From the NCBI RefSeq assembly GCF_016820655.1, contig NZ_WSFT01000053.1, forward strand, positions 1 to 64,000: a stretch of DNA of 64,000 bases, read 5' to 3'. Shown here piece by piece: positions 39,967 to 64,000 of the stretch. Under the pieces are notes generated by a model. That model searched no databases and was not told where the DNA came from. It saw only the letters and a list, made by a program, of their open reading frames with translations. The position numbers were made by a program, and so were the translations under genes. The stretch comes from Anaeromonas frigoriresistens (GTDB lineage Bacteria > Bacillota > Clostridia > Tissierellales > SIT17). Within the stretch, counting starts at the first letter, position 1. Each line of letters opens with the position of its first letter.

Positions 39967-39979
39967 GGGGTGGTTTATT

Positions 39980-40600
39980 ATTAATAATAAAGAATTGTTT
40001 TTACAAATTGAACCTAAAGTAACAATGAAACCAAATTCAAAGATAAAATTAAAGGATGTAGCATCAGCATTTTCTGAAGATAAAGGATTTCAAATAAGAA
40101 TAGAAGATTTGCATGTGGGAGAAGTGGGGAACTATGACAAAAATCAGGTTATCTCCTTAATCTCTTTAATCAAAAAAATTAAAGAGATTGATAGGGATGT
40201 AAATATAACAGTTTTTGGATCCCCTGAAATATTGATTAATATAACAAATGATAAAAAAGAAATAAGTATCTTGAAATTTTTAAAAATAGGAGTTATTTCA
40301 TTGTTATTATTTTTTGGTGCTGCAATAGCAATAATCAATTTTCATGATGATGTAAATATGGAGGATAGTTTAGAAGATATTAATTATATAGTTACTGGGG
40401 AGAGGGAAATAAGTCCTCTTTATCTAAAAGTACCATATTCATTGGGATTAGGAGTGGGAATGGTAACTTTTTTTAATAGATTATTAAGAAAGAAAAATAA
40501 AAATGAGCCCAGTCCATTAGAACTTGAGATGCATTCCTATAAAAAAAATATTGATGATTATATTCTAGATATAACTAAACATAATAAAAAAGGAAACTAG
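39980..40600 (+). CDS. spoVAA: Stage V sporulation protein AA (apparent AUU start)
   Basis: About 206 residues, the usual SpoVAA length. The N-terminal domain (ELFLQIEPKVTMKPNSKIKL, then KDVASAF) and the C-terminal membrane part (AAIAIINFHDDVNMEDSLED, then IVTGEREISPLYLKVPYSLG and NEPSPLELEMHSYK) match family members. Between the ribosome binding site AAGGGGTGG (39965-39973) and the conserved start no ATG/GTG/TTG lies at a proper distance. ATT at 39980 is 6 bases after it and would give M-N-N-K-E-L. In-frame ATGs at 39905 and 39926 lack ribosome binding sites and would add a foreign tail. The protein helps the spore take up dipicolinic acid. Confidence 0.85.
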   Translation: MNNKELFLQIEPKVTMKPNSKIKLKDVASAFSEDKGFQIRIEDLHVGEVGNYDKNQVISLISLIKKIKEIDRDVNITVFGSPEILINITNDKKEISILKFLKIGVISLLLFFGAAIAIINFHDDVNMEDSLEDINYIVTGEREISPLYLKVPYSLGLGVGMVTFFNRLLRKKNKNEPSPLELEMHSYKKNIDDYILDITKHNKKGN

Positions 40601-57580: not shown

Positions 57581-57789
57581 TGTTTATGTCTAAGTGATTT
57601 CAATAGGTATAGCCAATGATGGAAAATATAAAACTTTAATTTTTAAGGTGTATTATGATAAACATTAATTTTGAAGTCTATCTATATATACTTGAATTAA
57701 GGTGAACTTCATTGATATAAAAATATGAATTAAGATAAACATCTCTATTTTTATTGTGTATAAACAACAATAATATGGAGGTGTTTTTT
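57581..57789. other. Gap between the yebC-family gene and the recombinase
   Basis: Two direct repeats TGAATTAAGGTGAAC (57693-57707) and TGAATTAAGATAAAC (57726-57740) differ at two of fifteen positions and are spaced 33 bases apart, about three helical turns. They could be arm-type recombinase sites or regulator sites. A candidate attachment site is not visible, since the other island end is outside the window. Confidence 0.5.
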
Positions 57790-58689
57790 TTGTATTTAGA
57801 ATTTGAAGATTTTTTATTTAATAGTCAATCAAGGGGATTATCACCAAAAACAATTAAAAGTTATAGAAATACAACAGCATTATTCTTAAAATATTTAGAT
57901 AATGAAATGAATATTAAGGATATAAATGATATCAAACCAATCCACGTTAAAAAGTATTTTAAGAGTAAAAGTGATAGTGGATGTACAAATGTATACCTTA
58001 ATTCTATAAACAAGGTTCTAAGAGCATTCTTTAGGTACTGTAAAGAAGAAGAATATATAATAATTAATCCAATGGAGAAAGTGAAATTTTCAAGGGAAGA
58101 GAAAAAAGTGATAGAAGTATTTAATGATAATGAAGTTAGTAAGATGTTATTAGTTTATGATTTTTCTAATTATTTAAATGCCAGAAATAAAACGATTGTA
58201 TCAATACAATTAGATACTGGTATAAGAGCAAGTGAGACTATTAATATCATGAATAATCATATACAAGAAGATAGGTTATTTATTAGGGGAAAAGGGAATA
58301 AAGAAAGATATGTACCTATTTCATTGGAACTTAGAAAAGTTATTAAAAGATACAATAAACATAAAAGTATATATTTTAAAGGTAAAGAAATCCCTAACAA
58401 TTACTTTTTAAGTAGAACTGGAAGACCTTTAACAGTTGAGGCTTTAGAAAGAATATATAAGAAAGCTGGAACAATTGCACAAGTAAGAAATCAAATAAGG
58501 TGTAGTCCACATACTGCAAGACATTATTATTCAGTAAAAATGTTAGAAAATAATGATATCTATACAGTTTCAAAATTGCTTGGACATTCTAAAATAAATA
58601 TCACTCAGACATACTTATCATCGCTGACAAACGAGAAAATAATAGAGAAAGGTATATGTACAAGTCCGTTGAGTAGTTTAAATAAATAA
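57790..58689 (+). CDS. Tyrosine recombinase (XerC/D or phage integrase type)
   Basis: A 299-residue recombinase. The N-terminal SAM-like core-binding domain (about residues 1-90) has LSPKTIKSYRNTTALFLKYL. The catalytic domain has Arg in LDTGIRASETINI (about 143), Lys in IRGKGNKERYVPI (about 170), HTARHYYSV (His-x-x-Arg, about 245), LLGHSKINITQTYLS with His and the nucleophile Tyr (about 281). TTG at 57790 is taken as start, six bases after GGAGGTG. It resembles island integrases without a long arm-binding domain. It probably moved the restriction-modification cargo. Confidence 0.9.
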   Translation: MYLEFEDFLFNSQSRGLSPKTIKSYRNTTALFLKYLDNEMNIKDINDIKPIHVKKYFKSKSDSGCTNVYLNSINKVLRAFFRYCKEEEYIIINPMEKVKFSREEKKVIEVFNDNEVSKMLLVYDFSNYLNARNKTIVSIQLDTGIRASETINIMNNHIQEDRLFIRGKGNKERYVPISLELRKVIKRYNKHKSIYFKGKEIPNNYFLSRTGRPLTVEALERIYKKAGTIAQVRNQIRCSPHTARHYYSVKMLENNDIYTVSKLLGHSKINITQTYLSSLTNEKIIEKGICTSPLSSLNK

Positions 58690-58875: not shown

Positions 58876-59076
58876 ATGAGTAATGGAAAACGAGGAGGAA
58901 CTCGTAAAGGGGCAGGAAGAACACCTTTAGATGAGTGCGAAAAGAAAAAAGGTTTTAAGATTTATATAAGAGAAAATACAAAACAAGAAATATTAAAACA
59001 TGGTAAAGGGAGTAATTTTTCAGAAAAAGCAGTTGAACTAATTGCTAGTGAAATAAAAAATAGAAAAAATAAGTAA
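58876..59076 (+). CDS. Small basic DNA-binding-type protein, possible R-M controller
   Basis: A 66-residue protein: GKRGGTRKGAGRTPLDE (basic, with the K-G-A-G-R AT-hook-like motif) then KKKGFKIYIRENTKQEILKH and SNFSEKAVELIASEI. The strand plus two helices pattern resembles ribbon-helix-helix regulators. It stands between the recombinase and the DNA methyltransferase, under a promoter with an inverted repeat. It may control the timing of the restriction-modification genes, or its own expression. Function is an inference. Confidence 0.6.
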   Translation: MSNGKRGGTRKGAGRTPLDECEKKKGFKIYIRENTKQEILKHGKGSNFSEKAVELIASEIKNRKNK

Positions 59077-59117
59077 TTATCATATTTATTGAAAAGGTAA
59101 TTAGTAGGAGGATGAAC

Positions 59118-60329
59118 ATGGAAAGAACGGTTTGTGAATTATTTGCTGGTGTAGGAGGTTTTCGTTTAGGATTAGAGAAAGCATCTAAAGATTGGGATTT
59201 TGTATGGTCAAATCAATGGGAGCCAAAGAGAAAGTCACAAGATGCTTTTCAATGCTATATACATAATTTTGGAGAGTCTGATAGGCATGTAAATATAGAT
59301 ATTAATAAAGTGGATAAATCTATTATACCTAATCATAACCTTTTGGTTGGAGGTTTCCCTTGTCAAGATTATAGTGTAGCAAGTACAGGAGCCAAAGGAA
59401 TACAAGGTAAAAAAGGAGTTTTATGGTGGAGTATATATGAAACTTTAAAAGTGAAAAATCCTTCATTTATTTTATTAGAAAATGTGGATAGACTATTGAA
59501 ATCTCCTAGTAAACAAAGGGGTAGAGATTTTGGAGTCATGTTAGCATGTTTAAACAATCTTAATTACTCTGTAGAATGGAGAGTAATTAATGCAGCAGAG
59601 TATGGATTTGCTCAAAGAAGAAGAAGAGTTTTCATATTTGCATATAAAAATGATACTCGATTTTCTGAGTGTTTAGAGTATAATTCTTTAAGGGAATATC
59701 TACATAAAGAGGGATTTTTTCAAAAAGAGTTCCCAATTCAAGATAATTCTAATCCAAAGAAAATTCCTAAAGAAATTGAATTTGATTATAATGGTTTGGT
59801 AGATGTCTCTGATAATTTTAGTTTTATGTTTTTAAACTCAGGCATAATGAGAAAAGGTAAAATTTATACAGAAGAAACTTTACCTGACTTTAAAGGAGAT
59901 GTTAAAACTCTAGGAGATATTTTGGAGAAAGACGTTGATGAAAAGTATTATTTGAATGGCGAACTTGATGATTGGGATTATATGAAAGGTTCTAAGAGGA
60001 TAGAGAGAGTAAGCAAAACTGGACATAAATATACTTTCTCAGAAGGAGCCATAGCATTTCCTGACCCTATAGATAAACCATCTAGAACAATGTTAACAAG
60101 TGAGTCTTCAAAAAATAGAAGTACACATATAATTAGAGACCCTCAAACAAATAGATTGAGAAAATTAACACCTGTTGAATGTGAAAGATTAAACGGGTTT
60201 GATGATAACTGGACTAATAAAGGAATGTCAGAAAGGTTTAGATATTTTTGTATGGGAAATGCTTTAGTTGTTGGACTTGTTGAAAAAATGGGAAATGCTT
60301 TAGTTGATATATTTAAGAAAGAGGAATAA
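59118..60329 (+). CDS. DNA (cytosine-5-)-methyltransferase, Sau3AI-like
   Basis: A 403-residue C5-methyltransferase. Motif I CELFAGVGGFRLGLEKA binds SAM (about residues 5-21), motif IV GGFPCQDYSVAS has the catalytic Cys (about 79), motif VI LLENVDRLLKS, motif VIII QRRRRVFIFA and motif X MGNALVVGLVEK. The region around the motifs (NQWEPKRKSQDAFQCY; KGVLWWSIYET; KSPSKQRGRDFGVML) matches M.Sau3AI, which methylates the C of GATC. With the Sau3AI-like nuclease next to it this predicts GATC specificity. I choose ATG 59118; TAGGAGG ends at 59111. Confidence 0.92.
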   Translation: MERTVCELFAGVGGFRLGLEKASKDWDFVWSNQWEPKRKSQDAFQCYIHNFGESDRHVNIDINKVDKSIIPNHNLLVGGFPCQDYSVASTGAKGIQGKKGVLWWSIYETLKVKNPSFILLENVDRLLKSPSKQRGRDFGVMLACLNNLNYSVEWRVINAAEYGFAQRRRRVFIFAYKNDTRFSECLEYNSLREYLHKEGFFQKEFPIQDNSNPKKIPKEIEFDYNGLVDVSDNFSFMFLNSGIMRKGKIYTEETLPDFKGDVKTLGDILEKDVDEKYYLNGELDDWDYMKGSKRIERVSKTGHKYTFSEGAIAFPDPIDKPSRTMLTSESSKNRSTHIIRDPQTNRLRKLTPVECERLNGFDDNWTNKGMSERFRYFCMGNALVVGLVEKMGNALVDIFKKEE

Positions 60330-60685: not shown

Positions 60686-60712
60686 AAATAGAGGTCTATG
60701 ACCTCTATTTAT
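60686..60712. terminator. Bidirectional terminator in the R-M island
   Basis: AAATAGAGGTC pairs with GACCTCTATTT around TAT; it separates the convergent small-protein gene and nuclease-like gene. Confidence 0.85.
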
Positions 60713-61431
60713 TTATTTATTTGAAATTCACTCTTCAACCAAAGGTGAGAATTATCAGACTTAGCATAAGGTCTATCTCGATAAACAATAAAACGAAAAT
60801 CAGATAACTTAATTAGAGTTTTCTTATGAATTACTAAATTAATAGGTGTTTCTTGCAATTTATTAGAAGGAGTATAATGAAACCGAGGAAACTTGTAATC
60901 TCCAATAGAATGTAACTGTCCAAATTTATTTTTACTAATTATTGATTTAACTTGATTTTTAATTCCTTCATTATTAAGTTTGTAATTCTCTTCTATGAAA
61001 TCTTTAAGTTTCTTTTTCTCTAATAAAATAACCTCCACCGTATTAATATCATCTTCTTTCAAATTTATAAGGTCAATAGATTTTCTTTTTACCCAAGATA
61101 TTAAATAATGAGTAGTTAACTTAGAGTTATCAATAAACCATCCATCTCTCCAAAGATTACTGCTATTTTTAAATTTTAATTCAAAGGCAAAAGTTGGTAA
61201 ACCCTCTGGATAATGAAGGGATGCTTTTTCATCTATTATATATCTTTTATTATCAAAAGTGAAATTCAAATCAATGCCATCTCTTTGTATGTTTAAATCT
61301 TCTACACTGGAATCAGCATTAAATCTTTTAAAATTTGATATATCCAATTTATTATAAAAGAATTTATCCATAAATCCAGCTAATATTTTTTCTCCTTGCA
61401 TATCTGCTTGAAAATTGCTTTTTTTAGTCAT
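60709..61431 (-). CDS. Nuclease-fold-like protein next to the Sau3AI-type endonuclease
   Basis: A 240-residue protein. NIQRDGIDLNFTFDNKRYII followed by DEKASLHYPEGLPTFAFEL (about residues 47-85) gives the D...(D/E)xK arrangement of PD-(D/E)xK nucleases: Asp in RDGID, then Glu-x-Lys forms in DEKA and FELKF. The remainder has Trp-rich (WRDGWFIDN, LISWVKRK) and Lys-rich segments. It overlaps the end of the endonuclease gene by 8 bases (ATGACTAA), so the two are translated together. It may be a partner subunit or second nuclease. ATG 61431 has TGGAGAT. Confidence 0.6.
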   Translation of the reverse strand: MTKKSNFQADMQGEKILAGFMDKFFYNKLDISNFKRFNADSSVEDLNIQRDGIDLNFTFDNKRYIIDEKASLHYPEGLPTFAFELKFKNSSNLWRDGWFIDNSKLTTHYLISWVKRKSIDLINLKEDDINTVEVILLEKKKLKDFIEENYKLNNEGIKNQVKSIISKNKFGQLHSIGDYKFPRFHYTPSNKLQETPINLVIHKKTLIKLSDFRFIVYRDRPYAKSDNSHLWLKSEFQINK

Positions 61432-62821
61432 AATTATCTCCATTCTCTAGAATTTGTTCTAATATAAAAGAGTTATTTAACCAAAAGCTTTGCTTAGGCA
61501 TATCTCTACCATCAGGTAGAGGGTAAGTATCACTACCATCTTTACCATGCGGTCTAACATGTGAGACAGGGTTTTTAGATGCTGATGGTAAATTATTAAA
61601 TGTTCTTTTTCCCACTTTTTCTAACTTTACACCATCATTTATTATCTTAACAGTTTTTTCCCAAACATATTTTACTTCTGTATCCAAGATATTAATAGGC
61701 ATATTCCAGAACATAGTTCTTTCTAATATCAATTCATTATTTGAATTAAATTTATAAATAATGAAGAAGAACTTAGTTTCTTCTAACATAGTTCTAAAGG
61801 TTGAAGTTTCCCAATCTTCTTTTATTAATTCAATGAATTTAAAAGTTGGAAAAGACATATGTTCTTTTATTCTTCCATTAGATTGGATACGTATTGATTT
61901 CATCTTTATATTTGCTTTTTCAAATTCCTCTGCTTTATTTGACTTTAAGCCTAAGATTTTTAATGCTACTTGAGTAGTTTTTTGTTTAGCACTTTTACTA
62001 ACATTAAATTCTTCACAAAGTGTATCAATACTTTTTCCATGGTGTTCAGATATTTTATTTACAATATACTCTTCAAAAGTTTGATTTTCTAGTATAGATT
62101 TATCTTTAATGATAGGCTCATAAGTAGTTTTATGTTTTAGTATATAGTTTCTCAGTATGTAGTTCATATAAGTGCTTTTTAAAGAAAGAGCCCTTTGGGG
62201 TGCTTTTATATCAGAAAAAGGTTGAACTCTATAACTATCTGCTTTTTTACTACCTTTAGTACAAGCACCAAGATACATAGTATCTCCTTCTGATAATTCA
62301 TGTGCTTTACCTAATTTAATTTTATTTACTATTGTATTCCAATCTTGCTCAATAATTTTAAAATCTTCATGAGGATATTCAAATAACTGTACATATTTGA
62401 TAAGAAAATCAAGTTTATTAGGTATATCGAAATCATGAAGATAAAATATTAAAAGTAATAGTTTGTTTTTATTAAGAAAGGAACTATTGTGAAAAGTCTC
62501 GTAAACAATAGTTTCAAAGTTTATAATATTAAGCACTAATCTTTCCTTAGCAGAGAAAGGCTTTTTCTTACTTTTATTTTTCTTAAAAGGGGTTACTTTC
62601 AATTCTACACCTGCTTCTTTAAAGTCAGGTTCACTATCAGAATTTAGTTGATATTGAAAGTAGTATTTTTCTAATAATTGACCGAGTCCACCCTTATTAC
62701 CTTTCTTCATTTCAATATCATCTATTACTTCTCTAAATGTTTTTCCTATAAGTTTTTTAGCGTATTCTTCTATTGATACAGGATTTGTTTCATCATATGG
62801 TAATAACTGTTGATTATTAAT
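61424..62821 (-). CDS. Sau3AI/MutH-type restriction endonuclease (apparent AUU start)
   Basis: A 465-residue endonuclease, similar along its length to Sau3AI (489 residues). N-terminal MutH-like domain: ALGxxFE-like GLGQLLEKYYF, then EPDFKEAGVELKVTPFKK with the D...ExK catalytic triad, SAKERLVLNIINFE, KAHELSEG and CTKGS. SDIKAPQRALSLKSTYMN is in the middle and HVRPHGKDG, PKQSFWLNN at the end. The first 37 codons upstream of the first ATG (62710) are homologous to Sau3AI (SIEEYAKKLIGKTFREVIDD) and have no ATG/GTG/TTG. ATT at 62821 is 6 bases after AAGGAGGGGG, preceded in frame by TAA. Confidence 0.9.
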   Translation of the reverse strand: MNNQQLLPYDETNPVSIEEYAKKLIGKTFREVIDDIEMKKGNKGGLGQLLEKYYFQYQLNSDSEPDFKEAGVELKVTPFKKNKSKKKPFSAKERLVLNIINFETIVYETFHNSSFLNKNKLLLLIFYLHDFDIPNKLDFLIKYVQLFEYPHEDFKIIEQDWNTIVNKIKLGKAHELSEGDTMYLGACTKGSKKADSYRVQPFSDIKAPQRALSLKSTYMNYILRNYILKHKTTYEPIIKDKSILENQTFEEYIVNKISEHHGKSIDTLCEEFNVSKSAKQKTTQVALKILGLKSNKAEEFEKANIKMKSIRIQSNGRIKEHMSFPTFKFIELIKEDWETSTFRTMLEETKFFFIIYKFNSNNELILERTMFWNMPINILDTEVKYVWEKTVKIINDGVKLEKVGKRTFNNLPSASKNPVSHVRPHGKDGSDTYPLPDGRDMPKQSFWLNNSFILEQILENGDNYD

Positions 62822-62827
62822 TTATAT

Positions 62828-62837
62828 CCCCCTCCTT
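62828..62837 (-). promoter_or_regulatory. Ribosome binding site deciding the AUU start of the endonuclease
   Basis: AAGGAGGGGG on the minus strand at 62837-62828 lies 6 bases before ATT (62821-62819). It is among the strongest such sites in the window and serves no other start codon. Confidence 0.75.
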
Positions 62838-63385
62838 AAAAAAAGATTAATATTATGATACTATAATTTACATTTATTAGCAAACTTCTACTTTGATGAT
62901 TATTTTATATAGAATACATATCATTACAATAATTTAATTATAAAATTAACTATGAAATATGACATTAAAACTCTGGTTTTATCAACTTCAAAACTTTTGT
63001 GAATAGCTCAGTTGACAGATGTTTAATGGATTTAGTATGATATAATAACTTTATAAAAAAACAAGAAACGTGTAAAATAATGGAATATAAATACATTCTT
63101 AGATGTTATGTGATAGTGAAGAGTTATGTTGGGATATTTGAGTATAATAAAATTTTTGAAAATAAAGATATATATTTGTTGGAAAGGATGATAAAGATAG
63201 TAGGCGTAGCTATGATTACATTATAAGTAGTTATAAGAAAAGATAAATTTCACTTTCAAACTAAGAGATAATTTCATAATGATACTAATAGAATTATAAA
63301 AAAGTAAGATTTCAAGTATATAACTAACTAGAAGAAAATTATATGTTTTCTAACAATAAATCTAATGTTGAATAGGTGATTGTAA
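62838..63385. other. Long intergenic stretch in the island
   Basis: About 550 bases without a convincing gene. It should hold the endonuclease promoter on the left side. An ORF of 48 codons (63080-63226) lacks a ribosome binding site. I see no repeats or palindromes of note. Confidence 0.5.
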
Positions 63386-64000
63386 ATGCGTGAAAAAACA
63401 TGCTCAAAATGTGGTAGTACACTTCCTTTAAATAAAACTTATTATCAGAAGCGTAAAGATAGTAAAGATGGTTTTAGAGGGACGTGTAGAAAGTGTCAAG
63501 GGTATAACTATTTAATACCTAATCCTGTAAAGGAAGGCTTTAAAAAGTGTAGTAAATGTAAAAGAGAACTTCCTGAAAGTAAAGAATATTTTAATGCTGA
63601 TAAAAACAGACCAGATGGACTTACAACTCAATGTAAGGAATGTAGATACAAGAAGGAAATATTCAACGTGAAAAAAGAGGTTATTCCAGAAGAACATAAG
63701 AAATGTATAGACTGTAAAAAAATACTTCATATTTCTAATTTTAAAACGAACAAAAATTCAAAGGATGGATACTACATGGCTTGTACTTCTTGTTTAATAA
63801 AAAGAAGAAGAATTGGGTGTAAAGAAGGTCATAAAATATGTAGAAAGTGTAAGAGAGAACTTCCAAGTACAAATAAATTCTTTTTAATATCTAAAACAAG
63901 TTTTGATGGACTAGAAAATACTTGTTTAGAGTGTGCTGGAAGAAAATTTAATCCAAAGAAGAAATATACTCTATGGTCAGATGGAGAAATTGATATTTTA
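63386..64000 (+). CDS. Tandem zinc-ribbon repeat protein, incomplete at window edge
   Basis: 205 codons without a stop, running off the right edge. At least four units of about 45-50 residues repeat the pattern CxxC-(K-R-E-L-P)-x-F-x(8)-DG-x(4-6)-CxxC: CSKCGS, CRKCQ; CSKCKRELPESKEYF, CKECRYK; CIDCKK, CTSCLIK; CRKCKRELPSTNKFF, CLECAG. Each pair of CxxC should bind a zinc ion. After the last unit YTLWSDGEIDIL begins, which looks like the start of a helix-turn-helix (W-S-x-x-E-I-x-x-L). Proteins of this kind are often found in phages and mobile elements, sometimes before nuclease domains. ATG 63386 has AGGTGAT. Confidence 0.75.
   Translation, partial: MREKTCSKCGSTLPLNKTYYQKRKDSKDGFRGTCRKCQGYNYLIPNPVKEGFKKCSKCKRELPESKEYFNADKNRPDGLTTQCKECRYKKEIFNVKKEVIPEEHKKCIDCKKILHISNFKTNKNSKDGYYMACTSCLIKRRRIGCKEGHKICRKCKRELPSTNKFFLISKTSFDGLENTCLECAGRKFNPKKKYTLWSDGEIDIL

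What the first reader, a model, noticed from the sequence alone, without database searches (positions are those of the whole stretch)
62708..62840. Restriction endonuclease gene seems to start at AUU
Homology to Sau3AI continues 37 codons upstream of the first ATG, up to an in-frame TAA directly before ATT. This stretch has no ATG, GTG, TTG or CTG. An excellent Shine-Dalgarno site stands 6 bases before the ATT. Non-AUG AUU starts are rare (infC is the classic example). In a restriction gene, a poor start would keep nuclease levels low until methylation is complete. Standard annotation would start at 62710 and lose the first part of the MutH-like fold.
Basis: partly seen in the sequence, partly recalled or inferred. 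Interest (0 to 1): 0.72.

Follow-up and report, generated by a model that had tools for sequence, protein, structure and literature searches.

The report
Restriction enzyme gene starting at AUU
A bacterial DNA-cutting enzyme gene very probably begins with the rare start signal AUU, and it is not alone: several other genes of the same bacterial genus seem to do so too, one of them (the RNA-decay enzyme RNase Y) in nearly all of the thirty related genomes examined.

Summary
A Sau3AI-family restriction gene (62821..61424, minus strand) has no ATG, GTG, TTG or CTG in frame from its upstream stop to the ATG at 62710; homology, predicted fold and a strong Shine-Dalgarno site place the start at ATT 62821-62819. 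The same-genus relative has GTG at that place. Of 96 full-length family members, this one included, only this gene and L004 lack a canonical start.

A weak start as a restriction strategy is not supported: non-ATG starts are 14 of 96 in restriction genes, 8 of 86 in partner methylases (p 0.36).

The larger result: AUU starts recur in this genus. In 464 kb of the genome eight of 412 long ORFs (this one added by hand) show the signature. Thiamine diphosphokinase has ATT in all four genus genomes held and an NTG codon at the same place in 26 other loci examined; RNase Y has ATT in 27 of 30. The restriction gene is probably one member of a lineage-wide AUU set, though the raw excess over other loci is not significant.

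No protein or ribosome data exist here; sequencing error or recent start loss in this one gene is not excluded.

The parts
62819..62821 (-). proposed AUU (ATT) start codon of the restriction endonuclease gene
   Evidence: first codon after in-frame TAA; no NTG/CTG for 37 codons; aligned with GTG in the same-genus relative L005
62831..62837 (-). Shine-Dalgarno AAGGAGG; AGGAGG core 9 nt before ATT, same spacing as at the ATT of infC in the same genome
61424..62821 (-). Sau3AI-family type II restriction endonuclease, 465 aa from ATT
   Evidence: NF040973 553 bits; PDB 4pxg by sequence and by fold
62708..62710 (-). first in-frame ATG, where a standard gene caller would probably start; weak Shine-Dalgarno pairing
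   Evidence: -3.9 kcal/mol; position not conserved as Met
62855..62883 (-). promoter-like TTGCTA-17-TATCAT; would give a leader of about 25 nt (consensus match only)
62654..62821 (-). 5' part of the restriction gene (about 56 codons) resembling the same-genus relative L005, the rest resembling L012: a mosaic gene
   Evidence: breakpoint near codon 56, log-likelihood gain 15.1, 0 of 1000 shuffles
60709..61443 (-). 244-aa ORF overlapping the end of the restriction gene; no family match
59112..60329 (+). C5-cytosine DNA methyltransferase, convergent partner of the restriction gene, ATG start
   Evidence: TIGR00675 244 bits; PF00145
58876..59076 (+). 66-aa ORF upstream of the methylase, also next to it in L012 and L118; no family match; regulator role only guessed
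39977..40597 (+). SpoVAA-like gene, second gene of the window that seems to start at ATT (two adjacent ATT codons, 39977-39982); a TTG five codons after the second ATT has no close Shine-Dalgarno site
   Evidence: PF12164; ATT also in G002, ATG in G001 and G003; no NTG with Shine-Dalgarno

Best explanation
The restriction gene is translated from AUU at 62821-62819. A strong Shine-Dalgarno duplex places ordinary initiator tRNA (CAU) on AUU and initiation proceeds with a mismatch at the third base, giving fMet at reduced efficiency. Shown here: sequence, homology, Shine-Dalgarno site, absence of alternatives, and ATT starts of the same build in several other genes of the genus. Inferred: that AUU is read as fMet by ordinary initiator tRNA, that yield is lowered, and that IF3 level modulates it. 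In this lineage the AUU start is a recurrent option and not a device made for restriction genes; low nuclease yield may be a by-product or may be useful when the system enters a new cell.
For: Homology and predicted fold extend upstream of the first ATG to residues 14-17. Strong Shine-Dalgarno site only at ATT among the candidate codons 1-38. Spacing of 9 nt lies within the 5-11 range of NTG genes in the window (mode 8) and equals that of infC, which reads AGGAGG-N9-ATT in 5 of 5 genomes inspected. Same-genus relative has GTG at the aligned codon. ThiN: ATT in 4 of 4 genus genomes, NTG at the identical position in 26 of 26 other loci examined. RNase Y: ATT 27, ATC 2, TTG 1 of 30. YggS-like and HPP-like genes: ATT in both G000 and G001; SpoVAA: ATT in G000 and G002. 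The second-nearest relative of the restriction enzyme, L004, also lacks any NTG until codon 66, inside the active-site motif. Literature passages: AUU and AUA starts with extended Shine-Dalgarno sites in S. aureus gave about 10% of AUG in poor medium, up to 30% for one in rich medium (PMC13009471); engineered AUU works in two clostridia (PMC11040787).
Against: The ATT is not conserved in this gene: the nearest relative L012 has ATG six codons further in, L005 has GTG, and 94 of 96 have canonical starts. In SpoVAA two of the four genus members have ATG. One assembly only, no reads, no second strain; the genome has 3.57% estimated contamination. No expression data. The excess of AUU-type starts in the genus is not significant by the strict count (16 of 764 against 6 of 719, p 0.053; against 2 of 237, p 0.27), and control codon sets give 5-7 raw flags against 10-11 for ATH, so the case rests on orthologue conservation. 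In four of the five infC loci an in-frame NTG lies upstream of the Shine-Dalgarno site, so their ATT start is by analogy with known infC.
Confidence: 0.75

Rival explanations
1. Recent start-loss: an ancestral ATG or GTG mutated to ATT, so the gene is silenced or nearly so, on the way to becoming a pseudogene.
For: L005 has GTG at this place and L012 has ATG a few codons further in. 94 of 96 family members keep a canonical start.
Against: The 465-codon frame is intact with all invariant residues, and the Shine-Dalgarno site is strong. ATT starts are maintained across species in other genes of the genus, so ATT need not be a loss.
Confidence: 0.12
2. Sequencing or assembly error: the true codon is ATG.
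For: Single assembly; ATG differs from ATT by one base. (The same-genus GTG differs by two.)
Against: Substitution errors in assembled bacterial genomes are rare (general knowledge). A second relative in another genome also lacks a canonical start, and the same genome has other ATT starts found again in other species.
Confidence: 0.06
3. Translation starts inside, at ATG 62710 (Met38), giving a shortened but active enzyme.
For: The four invariant, presumably catalytic residues lie downstream of Met38.
Against: Weak Shine-Dalgarno pairing there (-3.9 kcal/mol); Met is not conserved at that position; two conserved helices would be lost.
Confidence: 0.04

Closest known systems
infC (translation initiation factor IF3), AUU start
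   Same: ATT start, strong Shine-Dalgarno site, 9-nt spacing; the same layout in infC of this genome and of G001, G002, G003 and G019
   Different: infC's non-canonical start serves autoregulation by IF3 (PMC5472188, passages read); the restriction gene's ATT is not conserved
S. aureus cvfC1 (AUU), ccpN and citZ (AUA) starts with extended Shine-Dalgarno sites
   Same: Firmicute, non-canonical AUH start behind a strong Shine-Dalgarno site (PMC13009471, passages read)
   Different: shown by ribosome profiling and reporters; here inferred from sequence
Borrelia burgdorferi pncA, AUU start, annotated too short
   Same: database start lies downstream of the real AUU start and cuts conserved N-terminal sequence (PMC13398362, abstract and passages read)
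   Different: shown there by genetics, biochemistry and crystal structure; there the truncation removes a catalytic residue
EcoVIII restriction gene tuned by rare arginine codons
   Same: translation-level limit on a restriction enzyme near its start (PMC6456624, passages read)
   Different: mechanism is rare codons at positions 16-17, not the start codon
Sau3AI restriction endonuclease
   Same: same family and fold; C5-cytosine methylase as partner here
   Different: start codon; the window's 5' end is a recombinant mosaic

Membership tests
Sau3AI-family type II restriction endonuclease | score over the curated equivalog cut-off (NF040973) | tested here: met
   553 against 300 bits
Sau3AI-family type II restriction endonuclease | two-domain fold over the full Sau3AI structure | tested here: met
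   model pLDDT 93.6; Foldseek 4pxg E 1e-43, TM 0.79
Sau3AI-family type II restriction endonuclease | invariant acidic/lysine residues E51, D66, E73, K75 (catalytic role recalled from MutH) | tested here: met
   invariant in 60 of 60 aligned sequences (60 of the 96 were given to it)
Sau3AI-family type II restriction endonuclease | adjacent C5-cytosine methylase | tested here: met
   59112-60329, TIGR00675; homologues found in the related loci
Sau3AI-family type II restriction endonuclease | cleavage at GATC | not testable with these tools
   needs enzyme assay
genes with an AUU start | no canonical start codon from the upstream stop to well inside conserved sequence | tested here: met
genes with an AUU start | strong Shine-Dalgarno site at working distance | tested here: met
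genes with an AUU start | ATT at the same place in orthologues of other species | tested here: not met
   not met for the restriction gene; met in the same genome for ThiN, RNase Y, YggS-like and HPP-like, and in one of three other genus members for SpoVAA
genes with an AUU start | initiation with fMet at AUU, discriminated by IF3 | not testable with these tools
   needs peptide or ribosome data

The most novel reading that the evidence does not exclude
This genus (class Clostridia by inference) runs a set of roughly 1-3% of its genes from AUU (also AUA, AUC) behind strong Shine-Dalgarno sites, an IF3-sensitive group that includes RNase Y, thiamine diphosphokinase, a YggS-family protein, SteA, SpoVAA, infC and, in this strain, an acquired restriction enzyme. 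RNase Y, a main RNA-decay enzyme, has an AUU start through much of the order, with a conserved leader motif, so mRNA decay would be tied to initiation fidelity, as an AUU start of E. coli pcnB may do for polyadenylation (pcnB known here only from a reference-list title; its role is recalled). Gene callers that know only NTG would truncate all of these.
Probability: 0.5. Interest if true: 0.75.

Novelty: new member of a known kind. Interest (0 to 1): 0.55.

Why it matters
The restriction gene itself would be a new AUU-start gene and a clear case of likely mis-annotation; no paper with a natural AUU-start restriction gene turned up in the searches made. The lineage view matters more. AUU starts, usually treated as a curiosity of infC and a few others, appear in several conserved genes of one genus and in RNase Y of most genomes examined in its order; in thiamine diphosphokinase the ATT stands exactly where other genera have ATG, TTG or GTG. 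That makes testable whether IF3 level or relaxed start selection controls a set of genes, and points to a systematic error in gene starts for these genomes.

Tried and rejected
Family-wide weak-start strategy for restriction genes: rejected as unsupported; restriction genes 14 of 96 non-ATG (2 of them without any NTG), methylases 8 of 86, p 0.36 (a methylase start was found in 86 of the 96 loci).

ACU start in L004: the codon aligned with L012's ATG is ACT, but ATC one codon on lies 8 nt after GGAGG. AUC is preferred because IF3 tolerates only Watson-Crick pairs at codon bases 1 and 2 (PMC10158994, abstract and passages). Not proved.

Special initiator tRNA: a pattern search found an ordinary CAU initiator-type stem in G001 and none in the G000, G002 and G003 drafts; ARAGORN calls Met tRNAs at the G001 locus. 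Unresolved for G000 itself.

RNA element in the leader: no Rfam match at 62600-63400. In six RNase Y loci the only match was a group II intron fragment at the edge of L226. The duplicated upstream segment (62924-63032 and contig 67842-67952) gave only short weak matches in relatives; its meaning is unknown.

Closer relatives: viral-contig scans gave none for the single protein, three loci for the alignment, none for a start-region DNA pattern. Plasmid and phage searches gave 19 and 3 records, all under 60% identity; these places were not checked for start codons, except that CP026601 recurs as L018.

Rows left out: seven loci were dropped as duplicates before alignment, leaving 105. Nine of the 105 were dropped before the count of 96: L020, L099, L102, L103, L104, L105 and L112 (400 aa or less), L101 (no N-terminal region) and L114 (26% identical; it too shows no ATG, GTG or TTG before its homologous block). 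L020 has an ATG when re-read. Five loci fetched later (L123-L127, some of them duplicates) were read, all carry an NTG before the conserved block, and they are not in the 96. L018 was scored 'none' by the automatic count because its ATG lies at -65 and was set to ATG by hand.

Survey caveats: flags in two L145 ORFs and in the 26479 and 330907 ORFs look like chance and are not in the strict count; the restriction gene itself fails the strict rule because of a chance TTG at codon 74 and was added by hand. Of 6 strict flags in the named loci only L018, L079 and L092 look convincing to me. The 719 control ORFs lie around Sau3AI loci and are richer in GC (35% against 29%), so they are an imperfect control.

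A 'non-canonical start codon' hit beside a phage methylase (PMC11855218) turned out to be GTG in an HNH endonuclease (passages).

Full report
What is there. The window holds a Sau3AI-type restriction-modification system. The methylase (59112-60329, plus strand) and the restriction gene (62821-61424, minus strand) are convergent, with a 244-aa ORF of unknown family (61443-60709) overlapping the end of the restriction gene. A phage-integrase-family gene lies at 57754-58689, so this may be a mobile island (inference). The restriction gene scores 553 bits against the Sau3AI model, cut-off 300, matches PDB 4pxg over residues 17-457, and its model (mean pLDDT 93.6) matches 4pxg at E 1e-43.

The start. 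From the in-frame TAA at 62824 the frame has no ATG, GTG, TTG or CTG until 62710. Homology and fold reach residues 14-17, so translation must begin upstream of 62710 if the enzyme is made whole. Pairing energy there is -12.6 kcal/mol; later ATH codons and the ATG at 62710 have -1.8 to -4.2. The 16S tail used is recalled, not read from this genome. Two helices (14-24, 29-33) would be lost with a start at Met38; the four invariant residues E51, D66, E73 and K75 would stay.

Relatives. 96 full-length sequences, this gene included, were compared: 82 ATG (including L018, set by hand), 9 TTG, 3 GTG, and 2 without any: this gene and L004 of genome G019. The same-genus relative L005 has GTG exactly under the ATT. 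The nearest relative L012 has ATG six codons further in. By eye, and allowing a 6-nt length difference, L013's ATG-AAT-AA matches this gene's ATT-AAT-AA. The gene is a mosaic: its first 56 or so codons resemble L005, the rest L012. In L004 the first NTG is codon 66, inside the active-site motif, so there too a non-canonical start or a defect must be assumed.

Is it a restriction strategy? The family gives no support: non-ATG starts 14 of 96 in restriction genes against 8 of 86 in methylases, p 0.36.

Is it the host? This was the turning point. A scan of 412 ORFs of at least 120 codons in 464 kb of the genome (window plus contig C10 76001-476000) found, by the strict rule, 7 further ORFs with no NTG behind a Shine-Dalgarno site but with ATT (6) or ATA (1) behind a strong one. 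They are SpoVAA (in the window, 39977), an HPP-family protein, a YggS-family protein, thiamine diphosphokinase, RNase Y, a DUF3866 protein (ATA) and SteA (names). In G001 of the same genus 9 of 352 are flagged, one of them CTG. Raw flag counts are weak evidence: control codon sets give 5-7 flags against 10-11 for ATH in these two genomes, and comparison with 719 ORFs of named loci (6 flagged) gives p 0.053, with 237 ORFs of three other genomes (2 flagged) p 0.27. Orthologue alignment is the strong evidence.

Orthologues. Thiamine diphosphokinase: in the four genus genomes held, ATT stands exactly where 26 other loci of the order have ATG (21), TTG (4) or GTG (1) (the 30 best of 58 genomes with a match among 60 searched). 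RNase Y: ATT in 27, ATC in 2, TTG in 1 of 30 (the 30 best of 60), 8-9 nt after the Shine-Dalgarno core for nearly all, with a leader motif [AT]CTTG[AG]AAA in 28 of 30 against 0.017 expected per 75 nt. YggS-like and HPP-like: ATT in both G000 and G001 (G002 and G003 not looked at). SpoVAA: ATT in G000 and G002, ATG in G001 and G003. infC: AGGAGG-N9-ATT in G000, G001, G002, G003 and G019, though in four of the five an in-frame NTG lies upstream of that Shine-Dalgarno site. SteA and DUF3866 were not compared with other genomes; SteA's profile match begins at its residue 1. Such conservation over orthologues with 53-92% protein identity within the genus is hard to explain by error or decay.

Reading. 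AUU behind a strong Shine-Dalgarno site is most likely a working start in this lineage, so the restriction gene's ATT most likely works too, at reduced yield. That yield is reduced rests on S. aureus reporters, about 10% of AUG in poor medium and up to 30% for one gene in rich medium (PMC13009471, passages). Clostridia can use an engineered AUU (PMC11040787, passages). IF3 control is known for infC and for the GTC start of Streptomyces sigR (PMC5472188, passages) and is inferred here. Whether the restriction gene gains anything from AUU is open.

What would change this. The restriction gene's own ATT rests on one assembly and is not conserved; if reads showed GTG or ATG, the gene would be ordinary, but the ATT starts of RNase Y and thiamine diphosphokinase would stand.

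Print. No paper joining an AUU start and a restriction gene turned up (listings; one hit and two read in passages). A search for AUU/ATT start or initiation codon held 81 papers, 40 listed; no listed title concerns RNase Y or a restriction gene. Only open-licence papers are in that library, so absence from print is not shown.

Noticed in passing
L210-L239 (RNase Y loci of 30 genomes; G000:C10:310933): RNase Y gene starts at ATT in 27 of 30 genomes of the order (ATC 2, TTG 1), with a conserved leader motif [AT]CTTG[AG]AAA upstream of the Shine-Dalgarno site in 28 of 30.
   Followed up: partly
window 39977-40597: SpoVAA-like gene apparently starting at ATT; ATT also in G002, ATG in G001 and G003.
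   Followed up: partly
L240-L269 (thiamine diphosphokinase; G000:C10:159941): ATT in the four genus genomes held, at exactly the place of ATG/TTG/GTG in 26 other loci of the order.
   Followed up: yes
G000 loci L138, L140, L152; G001 loci L167, L169, L175, L178: Further candidate ATT/ATA/ATC starts: HPP-family, YggS-family, SteA, DUF3866; in G001 also ORFs that look like PyrR, Ogt, a histidine kinase and others (names of the G001 ones guessed).
   Followed up: partly
window 62924-63032 and G000:C10:67842-67952: About 100 bp upstream of the restriction gene is 77% identical to a segment upstream of a 314-aa ORF 5 kb away; function unknown.
   Followed up: partly
window 61424-62821: The restriction gene is a mosaic: its first ~56 codons resemble the same-genus relative L005, the rest L012.
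   Followed up: yes
window 60709-61443: 244-aa ORF overlapping the restriction gene, without a family match; relatives lie in six other Sau3AI loci (L005/L118, L015, L017, L043, L085, L090).
   Followed up: no
window 58876-59076: 66-aa ORF upstream of the methylase, present also in L012 and L118; possible regulator, no family match.
   Followed up: no
L018, L079, L092: Three ORFs near other Sau3AI loci that also look as if they start at ATT.
   Followed up: no
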